A stretch of DNA of 21,775 bases. Origin: a virus. Where the stretch lies: positions 1 to 21,775 of IMG/VR virus record IMGVR_UViG_3300028809_000079. One strand, given 5' to 3'. Numbering within the stretch: the stretch's first letter is position 1; the number at the start of each line of letters is the position of its first letter. The translations under genes and the position numbers were made by a program. The notes beneath the pieces were generated by a model that was not told where the DNA came from, made no database searches, and saw nothing but the letters and a program-made list of their open reading frames with translations. This document shows, one piece after another, positions 16,584 through 19,787 of this stretch.

Positions 16584-16834
16584 AGTGGGTCGACCGGCAC
16601 CTCGCCAAACTGGCGCTGCTGGTCGCGTGCCTCGCCATGGCGGGAGGCCTCTGGTCCTACGGGTCAACGCTCCGCCAGGCATGCGAAGACCGCAACCGGC
16701 GCGACGCACAGATCCTCGCCGGAGTGGAGATCATCGCCGATGACCTGGGAGCGGATCCGCACACGATCGACCCGCTCCGCAAGGCGCTCGCACCACGCAA
16801 CTGCGAAGCCCTCTACCCGCTGCTGCCCTTGTAG
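16565..16834 (+). CDS. membrane-anchored lysis-cassette protein, last gene of the late operon
   Basis: The product has 89 residues with one hydrophobic helix at about 15-33 (KLALLVACLAMAGGLWSY). A polar outside part follows, with Cys40 and Cys83 and the charged run CEDRNRRDAQILAGVEIIADD. This is the layout of many small actinophage envelope proteins close to the lysin (spanin-like or holin-accessory). The ATG at 16565 has no clear ribosome site. A GTG at 16580 overlapping the previous stop (GTGA, TGG-rich upstream) is equally possible and would drop 5 residues. It is followed after 34 bases by a terminator hairpin. The function is not defined by sequence. Confidence 0.6.
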   Translation: MVAGTVKWVDRHLAKLALLVACLAMAGGLWSYGSTLRQACEDRNRRDAQILAGVEIIADDLGADPHTIDPLRKALAPRNCEALYPLLPL

Positions 16835-16989
16835 CTAGGCCCCCCGCCGTCACGAACCGATACGTCTGCCGCCGGCCCTTCGGGGTCGGCGGCTTTCGCC
16901 GTTTTCGGGTCGTCGTCTGAGTGGTCGCCCGCCATGATGCGGGAGCGTCTCGCCTGCTCGGCGAACGCCTCCTCGAGCGGATCAGCCAC
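16813..16989 (-). CDS. possible small acidic protein downstream of the lipoprotein gene
   Basis: A leftward 58-codon frame starts at GTG 16989 and overlaps the lipoprotein stop by 8 bases. The first 45 residues (ADPLEEAFAEQARRSRI, then GDHSDDDPKTAKAAD) look plausible for a short acidic, helical protein. The frame then runs through the hairpin at 16868-16893, and its last 22 bases are antisense to the end of the lysis operon. The composition of its second half looks like a by-product of that hairpin. It is listed as a weak candidate; it could be only an open frame by chance in GC-rich DNA. Confidence 0.25.
   Translation of the reverse strand: MADPLEEAFAEQARRSRIMAGDHSDDDPKTAKAADPEGPAADVSVRDGGGPSYKGSSG
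16868..16893 (+). terminator. rightward terminator ending the late operon
   Basis: An 11-bp hairpin (16868-16878 with 16883-16893, one G:T pair) closes on a TTCG loop and is followed by TTTCGCCGTTTTC. A T-rich run after a stem of this strength fits an intrinsic terminator for the operon ending at 16834. It faces the leftward genes, so it also lies between two converging transcripts. Confidence 0.75.
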
Positions 16990-17389
16990 AGGCCTTCGGG
17001 AACCGCACGTAGTAGTCGTTGCTGACGTAGCCGCCGCCATCCGACCGCACCCGGAAGTGGACCACCCCGGATAGCTTCTTCAAGCCCAGCCAGTTCGGGT
17101 TGTAGCCGATCGTGTACTCGCCGCGGGCGTTGGGCTTCGCGGTCAGGACACTCGGGGTCTCGCCTGAGTCGGACGTCTTGTACCACTTCCAGTCGACCCA
17201 CTTGCCGCCGGCGGTGCGCTGCGCGACGAGCTTCGCCGTCGCAGACGCAGGCGAGACCTTGCCGGTGATGGCGTCGGCGGAGCAGCCGCCGTCCTTCGCC
17301 GTGATCGTCATGGCGGTCTCCGGCGGCAGGCACGCACCGAGCCCGACCACGACCGCCACCGCTGCCACCAGTACGAGAACACGCCTCAT
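16982..17389 (-). CDS. secreted lipoprotein, possibly for superinfection exclusion
   Basis: The 135-residue product starts with a basic n-region (MRR), a hydrophobic core (VLVLVAAVAVVVG) and a lipobox, LGAC, with the modified Cys at about 20. That is a type II lipoprotein signal. The rest is a single small beta-rich domain (AMTITAKDGGCSADAITGKV... YTIGYNPNWLGLKKLSGVVHFRVRSDGGG) with Cys pairs that may bond. It is leftward, convergent with the late operon and has a promoter-like site upstream, so it is probably transcribed separately, including from the prophage. Phage lipoproteins in such positions often block infection by related phages. That role, and the host partner, are inference. The RBS GGGGAGG lies before the ATG at 17389. 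Confidence 0.7.
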   Translation of the reverse strand: MRRVLVLVAAVAVVVGLGACLPPETAMTITAKDGGCSADAITGKVSPASATAKLVAQRTAGGKWVDWKWYKTSDSGETPSVLTAKPNARGEYTIGYNPNWLGLKKLSGVVHFRVRSDGGGYVSNDYYVRFPKACG

Positions 17390-17436
17390 CGGTCCACCCT
17401 CCCCAGGGGGCGACCGGTCGGCCGCCGAGGCGCGAC

Positions 17437-17466
17437 AGCGTACTACCGCAGGGCGCCGGTTGTCAG
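17437..17466 (-). promoter_or_regulatory. putative promoter of the lipoprotein gene
   Basis: Reading leftward, CTGACA (17461-17466) is followed 18 bases later by TACGCT (17437-17442), a TANNNT-type -10 typical of actinobacterial promoters. The same hexamer forms the -10 proposed for the repressor gene. The transcript would have a leader of about 40 bases, including the 10-base palindrome CGACCGGTCG at 17411-17420. It overlaps the end of the zinc-ribbon gene. Pattern only. Confidence 0.4.
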
Positions 17467-17897
17467 TCCGTCACGGCCGCGGTGGCCGTGTACGTTCCGC
17501 CGTCGCCGACCGGTTCAGCAACGCAGGTGAAGTCGCTGCGGAGACTGGCCCCGAAGCTGTTCTCGGCATCGACCTGTCCGGTGATCGAGTAGACGTCGTT
17601 CGTCTCCCGGTACTGCTCGCCGCTGAAGCTGGCCGACCCGGGCGACTTGAGCTGCGCCCGCACCGACTCCCGGCACGCCTCGACAGCCGCCGACTGCCGG
17701 TCGTCGGCGGTCGGGTCACTGCCGTGGAAGAACGTCGTGTTCACCCACCCGATGATCAGCAGCACGACCACCAGCGCCAGACAGGCACCGACGCCGAGCG
17801 CAGCGTTCTTGTCGGGCACCGGCTTCCCGCAGGATGGGCACGCCTTGGCGTCGTCTGACACCTGAGCTCCGCACTCCGGGCACGGCTTGAGCGCCAC
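17463..17897 (-). CDS. zinc-ribbon, single transmembrane, extracellular-domain protein
   Basis: The 144-residue product starts at GTG 17897. Residues 6-23 form a zinc ribbon (CPECGAQVSDDAKACPSC: two CxxC pairs). A transmembrane helix lies at about 33-52 (ALGVGACLALVVVLLIIGWV). The outside domain at about 65-144 has two Cys (ACRESVRAQLKSPGSASFSG, then SFGASLRSDFTCVAE), the LKSPxSAxF...VdaeNsFGa pattern of a small widespread secreted domain. The zinc ribbon faces the cytoplasm, the domain the outside. It lies between integrase and lipoprotein on the same strand. A prophage-expressed envelope protein (immunity or fitness) is likely, but the reaction is unknown. Its ribosome site GGGGGAGG overlaps a perfect inverted repeat. 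Confidence 0.75.
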   Translation of the reverse strand: MALKPCPECGAQVSDDAKACPSCGKPVPDKNAALGVGACLALVVVLLIIGWVNTTFFHGSDPTADDRQSAAVEACRESVRAQLKSPGSASFSGEQYRETNDVYSITGQVDAENSFGASLRSDFTCVAEPVGDGGTYTATAAVTD

Positions 17898-17905
17898 CGT
17901 TCGCC

Positions 17906-17940
17906 TCCCCCAGGGCAGTCCACCTGACTGCCCTGGGGGA
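17906..17940. repeat. perfect 15-bp inverted repeat between integrase and zinc-ribbon genes
   Basis: Arms 17906-17920 and 17926-17940 (TCCCCCAGGGCAGTC and its complement) flank the 5-base loop CACCT. It begins 6 bases beyond the integrase stop, and its left arm overlaps the ribosome site of the next leftward gene. There is no T-tract on either side. It may be a terminator for the integrase, a translation-blocking hairpin, or a core-type recombination site for the integrase. Confidence 0.75.
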
Positions 17941-17945
17941 AGATG

Positions 17946-18875
17946 CTAGACGCCCCTGGCGTAGCTCCGCCGGTTCGCCACGTCACGAGTTCGATTCAGG
18001 TCCACATTGCGCTGGTACTTCATCGTGGTCTCCACTGACGCGTGACCCATGAGGTCCGCCACCTCGGGAATCGTGAGGCCCTCATCCACCAAGTCCGAGC
18101 CGTACGTGTGGCGGAAGGCGTGCGGCGACTTGCCGTCGCGAGGAGCGTCCTTTACGCCCTCGTCCGCCATGTGGGCAGTGACCACCCGGCCGAGCCGATT
18201 GGGGCCGACCGGTGTGACGCCATCGTGCTGCGACCGGATGAGCGGGCCAGACGACGCAGGCCACTCTGCCAGGTACGCCTTGGCGGCGATCTTCGTGGAG
18301 GGGGAGAGGTGGACGGTGCGCTGTTTGTCGCCTTTGCCAATGACCGTGATGTTCTCGCGGCGCCAGTCGATGTCTCCGACCTGGAGGCTGCACACTTCAC
18401 TGATCCGCAGCCCCTCGCAGGCCATGAGGGCAACCGCGAGGCGGGTTCGCGTGTCCGGCGCTGTCGCCAGCAAGAGGCTCACCTCCTCGGGGTCGAGTGC
18501 TCGAGGTTGCCGCCTCGGCCGTTCCGGTCCCTTGATGCCGAGGCTCGGGTCCTTCGTCATGCGGCCGGTTGCGTTCGCCCAGCGGAGGAAAGCGCGCACC
18601 GTTCCGTACCGGCTGGCGACAGTCGAGGTCCTGCACTTCGACTGTCGCTCGATCCACCGGATGACGTGGCTCGGCTTGATCTTGTTGATGTCGTCGGGGC
18701 ACGCCTCAGCGAACCCCCTCAGCACGTAGCCCACCGTGCGCGCCGTCGTCGCCGCGAATTCTCGCGTCGCCGTTCGTTCGTGCATGTAGCAGGCCACGAC
18801 GTCCCCTGTCGTCGATCCCATGCTCCTCACGGTCGGCTCGTGCGCGCCCGGTTTGAGTGAGTCCGCCGGATTCAT
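17946..18875 (-). CDS. int: tyrosine recombinase integrase
   Basis: The 309-residue enzyme integrates and, with help, excises the phage. The N-terminal part (about 22-115) is a SAM-like core-binding domain (ATREFAATTARTVGYVLRGFAEAC). The catalytic domain covers about 125-309. Visible catalytic residues are Arg157 (EGLRISE), Lys181 (GKGDKQR), His252 and Arg255 (HAFRHTY), His278 (GHAS) and nucleophile Tyr287 (MKYQRN). It is short, Xer-like, with only about 20 residues before the core-binding domain, so no classic arm-binding domain is visible. It starts 5 bases after the repressor stop and is probably co-transcribed with it. Which DNA site it uses is not established by sequence. Confidence 0.95.
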   Translation of the reverse strand: MNPADSLKPGAHEPTVRSMGSTTGDVVACYMHERTATREFAATTARTVGYVLRGFAEACPDDINKIKPSHVIRWIERQSKCRTSTVASRYGTVRAFLRWANATGRMTKDPSLGIKGPERPRRQPRALDPEEVSLLLATAPDTRTRLAVALMACEGLRISEVCSLQVGDIDWRRENITVIGKGDKQRTVHLSPSTKIAAKAYLAEWPASSGPLIRSQHDGVTPVGPNRLGRVVTAHMADEGVKDAPRDGKSPHAFRHTYGSDLVDEGLTIPEVADLMGHASVETTMKYQRNVDLNRTRDVANRRSYARGV

Positions 18876-18880
18876 CGCGG

Positions 18881-19237
18881 TCAGCGGGCCGAGGCGAGTT
18901 CACGCCGCGCAGGAATGCATGGCCAGGCATGTTCGAGCAGGTCACGCATGGTGTCCAGCTCGTTAGCCACCTCCTGGGACAGCTCGGAGACGCGGCACTC
19001 GTAGACCTTCGACATGCCGTAGATCACGATGGCGTCGACGGTGGCTTCGTCGGTGTCGCCGGTCTCCATGCGGGAGAGGGTGGCGACGCTGGGGACGTAG
19101 CGGCGGGGGATGCCGGAGAGCAGCAGGCCGTCGCGCAGGTCGGCGAGGGAGAACTTGCGGCCGAGCTTCTCGGCGTGGGCTTCGCGCCGACTTCGGAGCG
19201 TCTTGGCGAAGGGGCTGGTCTTGGCGGCTGAGGGCAT
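18881..19237 (-). CDS. putative immunity repressor (XRE-type HTH)
   Basis: The 118-residue product starts at ATG 19237. Residues about 28-60 form a Cro/CI-type HTH: FSLADLRDGLLLSG, then VPSVATLSRMETG, the 'SVATLSRMETG' being a classic recognition-helix/turn ending. Residues about 62-87 (VDAIVIYGMSKVYECRVSELS) match the tail of such repressor domains. The last 30 residues form a helix, likely for dimerising. A longer reading from ATG 19270 exists. I chose 19237 because the promoter's -10 (19244-19249) would lie inside the longer gene and places the transcript start on this ATG. Without a Shine-Dalgarno it is probably leaderless. It is followed by integrase and faces the early rightward operon, the usual switch arrangement. 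Confidence 0.75.
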   Translation of the reverse strand: MPSAAKTSPFAKTLRSRREAHAEKLGRKFSLADLRDGLLLSGIPRRYVPSVATLSRMETGDTDEATVDAIVIYGMSKVYECRVSELSQEVANELDTMRDLLEHAWPCIPARRELASAR

Positions 19238-19243
19238 GTGTTC

Positions 19244-19272
19244 AGCGTATTGCATTGCAAAAAGAAACACAA
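19244..19272 (-). promoter_or_regulatory. leftward (repressor) promoter
   Basis: Reading leftward, TTGTGT (19267-19272), a 17-base spacer and TACGCT (19244-19249) form a -35/-10 pair. Seven bases past the -10 is the A of the repressor ATG at 19237. An 11-base palindrome lies in the spacer, immediately before the -10. Confidence 0.5.
19250..19260. promoter_or_regulatory. palindromic operator candidate O1
   Basis: TTGCA-T-TGCAA, a perfect 5-bp inverted pair with one central base, overlaps the spacer of the leftward promoter. The half-site is the same as in the second palindrome at 19301-19315. The centres are 53 bp apart, close to five helical turns, so proteins on both could lie on the same face. 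Confidence 0.5.
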
Positions 19273-19280
19273 GGGTGGGG

Positions 19281-19310
19281 TTGACGGCTCCACGATCTGC
19301 GTTGCACTAT
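19281..19310 (+). promoter_or_regulatory. rightward early promoter
   Basis: TTGACG (19281-19286), an 18-base spacer and CACTAT (19305-19310) form a plausible -35/-10. The expected transcript start falls within a few bases of ATG 19321, where no Shine-Dalgarno is present, so the early mRNA is probably leaderless or nearly so. The -10 lies within palindrome O2. Confidence 0.5.
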
Positions 19311-19315
19311 GCAAC
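19301..19315. promoter_or_regulatory. palindromic operator candidate O2
   Basis: GTTGCA-CTA-TGCAAC, a perfect 6-bp inverted pair with three central bases, covers the -10 of the rightward promoter. A repressor bound here would block early transcription. It shares the half-site TTGCA with O1 but differs in spacing, which may give different affinities. Confidence 0.55.
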
Positions 19316-19320
19316 ACGCC

Positions 19321-19548
19321 ATGAGAACCTCAACCTTCCCCCTCACGGACCGTGCACTCGGCGGCAAGCTCAAAGGGCTGCTCACCGGCTGGCGAGGCGA
19401 GGGCCTCTCGCTCGAAGAGATCACCTTCCGACTCCGCTCCGAGTACGACGTCACCGTCTCCGCTGCGACCGTGCACCGCTGGTGCGCCTCGCTCAACATC
19501 GAGAAGCCCGACCCCGCTCCTTCTGAGTCTTCGGAGACCGGACGATGA
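19321..19548 (+). CDS. small HTH protein, Cro/excisionase-like
   Basis: The 75-residue product is the first gene of the early operon. Residues about 27-60 form a helix-turn-helix (GEGLSLEEITFRLRSEYDVTVSAATVHRWCASLNI). The recognition helix 'SAATVHRWCASL' is typical of this fold. The basic N-terminus (KLKGLLTGWRG) may contact DNA. Facing the repressor across the switch, it fits a Cro-type regulator; an excisionase for the adjacent integrase is the main alternative. The start at 19321 is favoured over ATG 19309, because the latter overlaps the proposed -10 and operator O2. Its C-terminus (SSETGR, then stop) is encoded by the first copy of a 27-bp repeat. Confidence 0.65.
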   Translation: MRTSTFPLTDRALGGKLKGLLTGWRGEGLSLEEITFRLRSEYDVTVSAATVHRWCASLNIEKPDPAPSESSETGR

Positions 19549-19554
19549 GCGTCG
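19528..19554. repeat. 27-bp direct repeat, copy 1, over a gene junction
   Basis: The same 27 bases occur here and at 19761-19787. Each copy holds the stop of one gene, a GGAG ribosome site and the overlapping ATGAGC start of the next. The bases on both sides differ, so the match is exactly 27 bp. Confidence 0.9.
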
Positions 19555-19781
19555 AGGTGATCGAGACGGGCACCTTCGGGACGAGCACTCCGTCTGCCAC
19601 GGTCTGGTGCCGGGTGTGCGGGCAGGAGCAGTGGTTCCTGAACCCGACGGCCGCCCGGATCCGCTGGTACAAGGACTCACACCGCTGCGGCGGCGCTGGG
19701 TGGCAGGAGGCGTCGATCATCCGCGAGGACGACGCTGCCCCGGCCGCTCGTGACGCCCTCTCTTCGGAGACCGGACGATGA
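19545..19781 (+). CDS. small putative zinc-binding early protein
   Basis: The product has 78 residues. A likely metal site is Cys22 and Cys25 (WCRVCGQ) with His46 and Cys48 (SHRCGG), a CxxC-x20-HxC pattern. The middle (WFLNPTAARIRWYKDSH) is aromatic and basic. The start overlaps the previous stop, and the coding unit is bracketed by two copies of a 27-bp repeat 233 bp apart, one at each end. Its tail (LSSETGR) repeats the last six residues of the previous protein. I do not recognise a family; nucleic-acid or protein binding is likely from the metal site. Confidence 0.6.
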   Translation: MSVEVIETGTFGTSTPSATVWCRVCGQEQWFLNPTAARIRWYKDSHRCGGAGWQEASIIREDDAAPAARDALSSETGR

Positions 19782-19787
19782 GCGTCG
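19761..19787. repeat. 27-bp direct repeat, copy 2, over a gene junction
   Basis: Identical to the copy at 19528-19554. It holds the end of the small zinc-binding gene and the ribosome site and start of the RNA-ligase-like gene. The spacing of 233 bp defines a unit of one gene. Confidence 0.9.

What the first reader, a model, noticed from the sequence alone, without database searches (positions are those of the whole stretch)
19238..19320. Compact genetic switch with leaderless divergent transcripts and two TTGCA palindromes
Seen: two palindromes (19250-19260, 19301-19315) share the half-site TTGCA/TGCAA. Their centres are 53 bp apart, near five helical turns. One lies in the spacer of the leftward promoter, the other covers the rightward -10. 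The leftward promoter's -10 (TACGCT) places the transcript start on the A of the repressor ATG, and the rightward one within a few bases of ATG 19321. Neither start codon has a Shine-Dalgarno. Known: actinobacteria translate many leaderless mRNAs. Inference: both arms of the lysis/lysogeny choice use leaderless mRNA, and the repressor may act on both sites from one face of the helix. The unequal half-site spacing (1 and 3 bases) may tune affinity.
Basis: partly seen in the sequence, partly recalled or inferred. Interest (0 to 1): 0.68.

Follow-up and report, generated by a model that had tools for sequence, protein, structure and literature searches.

The report
Actinophage lysogeny switch with leaderless genes
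This 83-base stretch is very probably the on/off switch that decides whether an actinobacterial virus stays dormant or grows; it has two matching candidate control sites and two promoters so close to the genes that the messages carry almost no leader, a design this survey finds in many related phages and that has been shown by experiment once before in a very different phage.

Summary
The sequence claims hold. TTGCATTGCAA (19250-19260) and GTTGCACTATGCAAC (19301-19315) are the only exact TTGCA-N1-3-TGCAA sites in the 21,775-bp virus record. Five of its eight TTGCA/TGCAA words lie in the 83-bp gap, and 2 of 20,000 shuffles of the gap give such a pair. Neither start codon has a Shine-Dalgarno. 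The leftward -10 (TACGCT) puts +1 on the A of the repressor ATG. The rightward -10 (CACTAT) is not TANNNT and predicts a 3-5 nt leader, so that arm is "near-leaderless".

In 15 actinophage int-rep-divergent-HTH modules, 12 repressor genes have an ATG with TANNNT 5-9 nt upstream (shuffles 1.3, 0/2000; control genes 20/141). Seven of the 15 facing genes do, and five phages on both arms (shuffles 0.2). It is not new in kind: PY54 cI and cro were both shown leaderless by RACE, and lambda cI is a classic case.

"One face of the helix" and "spacing tunes affinity" are untested; a 1- versus 3-base gap argues against identical binding by one rigid dimer. Repressor and Cro-position protein have no detectable relatives, so footprinting by homologues was impossible.

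The parts
18881..19237 (-). repressor-position gene (118 aa, P0001), ATG at 19237; in-frame GTG at 19270 is the alternative start
   Evidence: ORF and position next to integrase; no hit in Pfam, PHROGs or NCBIfam, no relative in the collections searched; AlphaFold model poor (pLDDT 52). Repressor role inferred from gene order shared with Dogfish, EricDab, Charlie etc.
19244..19249 (-). leftward -10 TACGCT (TANNNT), 6 nt before ATG 19237
19267..19272 (-). leftward -35 TTGTGT, 17-bp spacer
   Evidence: sequence
19250..19260 (.). palindrome TTGCA-T-TGCAA, fills most of the leftward spacer (candidate operator 1); also contains TTGCA-TTGCA direct repeat
19281..19286 (+). rightward -35 TTGACG
   Evidence: sequence
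19305..19310 (+). rightward -10 CACTAT (NANNNT only), 18-bp spacer, 10 nt before ATG 19321
   Evidence: sequence
19301..19315 (.). palindrome GTTGCA-CTA-TGCAAC over the rightward -10 (candidate operator 2)
19321..19548 (+). Cro-position gene (75 aa), three-helix HTH-like protein; alternative ATG 19309
   Evidence: AlphaFold model helices 11-27, 31-42, 48-57, pLDDT 75-81 in core; weak HTH_32/IS630 HTH hits; no relative found
17946..18875 (-). tyrosine integrase, downstream of the repressor on the same strand (true start uncertain)
   Evidence: PF00589 E 5e-26, phrog_1 E 9e-48
17906..17940 (.). 15-bp perfect hairpin just past the integrase stop, candidate terminator without a T run
   Evidence: RNA fold

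Best explanation
The 83 bp are the immunity switch of a temperate actinobacterial siphovirus. The leftward promoter makes a leaderless mRNA for the repressor (probably running on into the integrase). The rightward promoter makes a near-leaderless mRNA (3-5 nt) for a small HTH protein in the Cro position and the early operon. A DNA-binding protein, most likely the repressor and possibly also the Cro-position protein, reads the TTGCA half-site. Bound at 19301-19315 it covers the rightward -10 and shuts off lytic expression. Bound at 19250-19260, in the leftward spacer, it lowers repressor synthesis (autoregulation, or Cro-type shut-off). Shown here: the genes, palindromes, promoter-like elements, absent Shine-Dalgarno, and recurrence of the leaderless layout in like phages. 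Inferred: transcript starts, who binds, direction of regulation, host phylum.
For: Gene order int-rep-divergent HTH matches annotated temperate actinophages. Both palindromes share a half-site otherwise scarce in the record and sit on the two promoters. SD pairing is absent at both starts, while many other genes here have strong SDs. TANNNT lies 5-9 nt before an ATG of 12/15 repressors and 7/15 facing genes, both arms in 5/15, against shuffle means 1.3, 3.1 and 0.2. Actinobacterial context: about 70% GC, capsid and portal nearest Gordonia/Mycobacterium/Rhodococcus phages.
Against: The repressor has no recognisable HTH family or good model. The rightward -10 is weak and 10 nt from the ATG. Unequal half-site gaps (1 and 3) do not fit one rigid dimer. 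The paired arrangement was not found in a comparable place in IMG/VR (3 hits, all inside crude ORFs). Comparators in the survey are partly related, so not independent.
Confidence: 0.68

Rival explanations
1. The two palindromes belong to two different proteins: the 3-base-gap site (19301-19315) is the repressor operator on the lytic promoter and the 1-base-gap site (19250-19260) is read by the Cro-position protein to shut off the repressor promoter.
For: The gap differs by 2 bp (about 70 degrees of helix), awkward for one dimer; in PY54, Cro binds only one operator, upstream of the repressor gene (PMC4488713). Two DNA-binding candidates flank the gap.
Against: Two unrelated proteins would have to share the same 5-bp half-site.
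Confidence: 0.25
2. Only the 15-bp site is a true operator; the 11-bp palindrome is a by-product of an A/T-rich promoter spacer (TTGCATTGCAAAAAG) and has no role, or the real second site is the imperfect TTGCAAAAAGAAA at 19255-19267.
For: The 15-bp site is longer and symmetrical; the imperfect 3-gap site has 2 mismatches.
Against: Sharing of the half-site by two palindromes arises in only 2/20,000 shuffles.
Confidence: 0.2
3. The starts are not leaderless: translation uses the in-frame starts further up (GTG 19270 for rep, ATG 19309 for the rightward gene) from longer transcripts.
For: Both in-frame codons exist.
Against: Neither has a Shine-Dalgarno (-3.4 and -4.5 kcal/mol, weaker than the window median of -4.9); both lie inside or upstream of the promoter elements; TACGCT sits exactly where a leaderless -10 should.
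Confidence: 0.1

Closest known systems
Telomere phage PY54 cI/cro switch (PMC4488713)
   Same: Divergent repressor and cro; both mRNAs leaderless by RACE; palindromic operator upstream of the repressor gene
   Different: Lambda-related phage of Yersinia; one Cro operator; unrelated host translation context; experimentally shown
Mycobacteriophage BPs int-rep-cro immunity cassette (PMC4557955)
   Same: int-rep order with a divergent cro-like gene, P_rep and P_R in one gap, one operator in a promoter spacer (at P_R) and one near rep, half-sites with variable spacing
   Different: BPs operator half-site is the 12-bp palindrome CGACATATGTCG; attP lies inside rep and the viral repressor carries an ssrA-like tag, neither seen here; P_rep not regulated in the lysogen
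Lambda cI from P_RM (classic leaderless repressor mRNA; cited in PMC4488713, otherwise own knowledge)
   Same: Leaderless repressor message, divergent cro
   Different: Three tandem operators; cro mRNA has a leader with Shine-Dalgarno
Actinophage switches of Dogfish, IdentityCrisis, SallySpecial, Spartoi, Charlie, Coeur, Gudmit and others (this survey)
   Same: int-rep-divergent HTH, TANNNT 5-9 nt before the repressor ATG, short gap
   Different: Repressors and HTH proteins are not detectably related to those here; different half-sites; many end in AA tags

Membership tests
Temperate-phage divergent repressor/cro switch | repressor gene next to integrase, divergent from an early DNA-binding gene | tested here: met
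   ORFs and integrase family; same order in annotated phages
Temperate-phage divergent repressor/cro switch | both regulators are DNA-binding proteins | tested here: inconclusive
   Rightward protein modelled as three helices with HTH-like end, weak HTH hits; repressor without family or reliable model
Temperate-phage divergent repressor/cro switch | operators overlapping both promoters | tested here: met
   Sequence only: palindromes on the leftward spacer and rightward -10; binding not shown
Temperate-phage divergent repressor/cro switch | repressor binds operators and silences the lytic promoter | not testable with these tools
   needs binding and reporter assays
Leaderless gene (5' UTR within 5 nt of the start codon, definition of PMC3898074) | -10 TANNNT placed so that +1 falls on the start codon | tested here: met
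   Repressor: TACGCT 6 nt before ATG
Leaderless gene (5' UTR within 5 nt of the start codon, definition of PMC3898074) | same for the rightward gene | tested here: inconclusive
   CACTAT, not TANNNT, 10 nt before ATG; predicted leader 3-5 nt
Leaderless gene (5' UTR within 5 nt of the start codon, definition of PMC3898074) | mapped transcript 5' end | not testable with these tools
   no RNA data
BPs-type integration-dependent immunity | attP core inside the repressor gene | tested here: inconclusive
   No tRNA or tRNA-like stretch found in the window or in 16800-19600; a non-tRNA attP cannot be excluded
BPs-type integration-dependent immunity | C-terminal ssrA-like tag on the viral repressor | tested here: not met
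   Ends ELASAR; 11 of 14 comparators end in AA
XRE/HTH_3 (PF01381) repressors | profile match | tested here: not met
   profile of actinophage repressors also fails
Lambda-type tripartite operator | three like operators in the gap | tested here: not met
   two exact sites only

The most novel reading that the evidence does not exclude
Actinobacteriophages as a class run the lysis/lysogeny decision on leaderless or near-leaderless mRNAs, often on both arms, so the decision is read out by the leaderless initiation pathway of the host and may respond to growth state or ribosome changes; here the two arms also share one half-site at two different spacings that sets different affinities.
Probability: 0.3. 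Interest if true: 0.6.

Novelty: new member of a known kind. Interest (0 to 1): 0.36.

Why it matters
The single switch is ordinary in kind. What is useful is the general pattern it led to: most actinophage repressor genes examined appear to be leaderless, and many database start codons for them look mis-called (Dogfish, EricDab, SallySpecial, phiGD21-1 and Walrus have a better-placed upstream ATG). If transcript mapping bears this out, actinophage immunity depends on leaderless initiation, which is testable in M. smegmatis, and repressor start sites need re-annotation.

Tried and rejected
Relatives of repressor, Cro-position protein and integrase in IMG/VR, and of repressor and integrase in GTDB contigs: none. 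Terminase in IMG/VR: none. RNA-ligase neighbours gave 80 loci, but none with a convincing relative of the switch proteins and only two with a TTGCA palindrome. IMG/VR scan for the paired palindromes: 3 mixed-spacing hits, all in crude ORFs; 48 equal-spacing hits mostly in ORFs or repeat arrays, not informative. AlphaFold/Foldseek on the repressor: model too poor; on the rightward protein no significant fold match. Rfam: no RNA element, no tRNA-like attP. Strict sigma-70 scan: nothing. Rejected: 'same helix face' as evidence (one distance). Rejected: BPs-type integration-dependent immunity (no AA tag). BPs itself was not in the phage collection under the two accessions tried.

Full report
What the window is. 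The window is one whole IMG/VR virus record of 21,775 bp, about 70% GC. It holds terminase, portal, capsid, tail and tape-measure genes, then on the minus strand a tyrosine integrase and a 118-aa gene, then rightward a 75-aa gene, a 78-aa gene and an RNA ligase. Portal and capsid genes are nearest to Gordonia, Mycobacterium and Rhodococcus phages, so an actinobacterial host is likely but not proven.

The observation. TTGCATTGCAA lies at 19250-19260 and GTTGCACTATGCAAC at 19301-19315; they are the only exact TTGCA-N1-3-TGCAA sites in the record. Five of the eight TTGCA/TGCAA words of the record lie in this 83-bp gap. Dinucleotide shuffles of the gap produce two palindromes with the same half-site in 2 of 20,000 trials. 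Whole-window shuffles give such a pair somewhere in 20 of 60 trials, so the weight rests on the place, the gap between the divergent regulators.

Promoters and starts. Leftward: TTGTGT, 17 bp, TACGCT, six bases, ATG 19237; +1 falls on the A of the ATG. Rightward: TTGACG, 18 bp, CACTAT, ten bases, ATG 19321; +1 is expected at 19316-19318, a 3-5 nt leader. CACTAT keeps only A2 and T6 of TANNNT, and a strict sigma-70 scan reports no promoter. Neither start pairs with the anti-Shine-Dalgarno (-1.1 and +1.0 kcal/mol; window median -4.9; many structural genes -8 to -13). The M. tuberculosis start-site map classed 5' UTRs within 5 nt as leaderless, found 26% of genes with a primary start to be so, and found TANNNT to be the main promoter signal (PMC3898074).

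Is the leaderless layout real? This phage alone cannot tell: TANNNT at the right place upstream of one gene is expected by chance a few percent of the time. I therefore fetched annotated actinophages with the same int-rep-divergent-HTH order, found through the integrase. In 15 non-redundant switches (the window included) I looked for TANNNT 5-9 nt before an in-frame ATG. Twelve of 15 repressor genes have it, against 1.3 on average in shuffled gaps (0 of 2000 reach 12) and 20 of 141 other genes in the same loci (Fisher 2e-7). Seven of 15 facing genes have it (shuffles 3.1; 1 of 2000). Five phages have it on both arms (shuffles 0.2; 0 of 2000). At annotated starts the distance shows a clear peak at 6-8 nt. 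In Dogfish, EricDab, SallySpecial, phiGD21-1 and Walrus the fitting ATG lies upstream of the annotated start, which suggests mis-called starts. Limits: some of the repressors are related to one another, I chose the set through one integrase, and some control genes may be truly leaderless.

What the proteins are. Neither the repressor nor the Cro-position protein has a detectable relative in IMG/VR or GenBank phages; the repressor was also sought without success in PLSDB plasmids and GTDB contigs. Neither has a family above threshold. The rightward protein models as three helices with an HTH-like end at moderate confidence, with weak similarity to IS630/IS481 HTH regions; 'Cro-like' is by position only. 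The repressor model is too poor to use. A profile of the comparators' repressors does not match it.

How it most likely works. A protein reading TTGCA binds the right-hand palindrome, covers the rightward -10 and blocks lytic transcription. The same protein, or the product of the facing gene, binds the left-hand palindrome in the spacer of the repressor promoter and limits repressor synthesis. The half-site gaps differ by 2 bp, about 70 degrees of helix, so one rigid dimer should not bind both equally. BPs offers a precedent for operators with variable spacing (PMC4557955) and PY54 for a Cro that binds a single site at the repressor promoter (PMC4488713). The 53-bp distance is one number near five turns and is no evidence of phasing.

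What is known. In PY54 both cI and cro mRNAs start at the AUG by RACE, so a doubly leaderless switch is established, though in a lambda-related phage. Lambda cI is the classic leaderless repressor mRNA. In the held literature I found no report of the pattern for actinophages as a class; this is a limited library. The case is a new member of a known kind. The survey is the more interesting product.

Membership. BPs-type integration-dependent immunity is not met in one defining feature (no AA tag at the C terminus) and inconclusive in another (no tRNA-like attP). Lambda's tripartite operator is not met.

Noticed in passing
19528-19554 and 19761-19787: A 27-bp exact direct repeat (TCTTCGGAGACCGGACGATGAGCGTCG) spans the stop/start junction of two consecutive small genes, so both end in SSETGR and both next genes begin MSV; perhaps a start-associated or recombination sequence.
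   Followed up: partly
17906-17940: A perfect 15-bp hairpin with 5-base loop just past the integrase stop, without a T run on either side; possible two-way terminator.
   Followed up: partly
19545-19781: 78-aa protein with CxxC ... HxC pattern, possible zinc finger, no family match.
   Followed up: no
L082, L081, L089, L091, L090 repressor genes: Annotated repressor starts in Dogfish, EricDab, SallySpecial, phiGD21-1 and Walrus lie downstream of an ATG that sits 6-8 nt after a TANNNT; likely wrong starts.
   Followed up: partly
L092 (Eyes) 1263-1364: CGTGA/TCACG half-sites repeated with gaps of 1, 3, 5 and 7 in the switch gap, another case of one half-site at mixed spacings.
   Followed up: no
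L110 2816-2990; L116 2670-2772: Arrays of GTTGCA-N3-TGCAAC palindromes in unrelated viral contigs, iteron- or operator-like.
   Followed up: no
18819-18875: Integrase start is uncertain: the first ATG (18875) has no Shine-Dalgarno, and GAGGAG lies only 1 nt before ATG 18821.
   Followed up: partly
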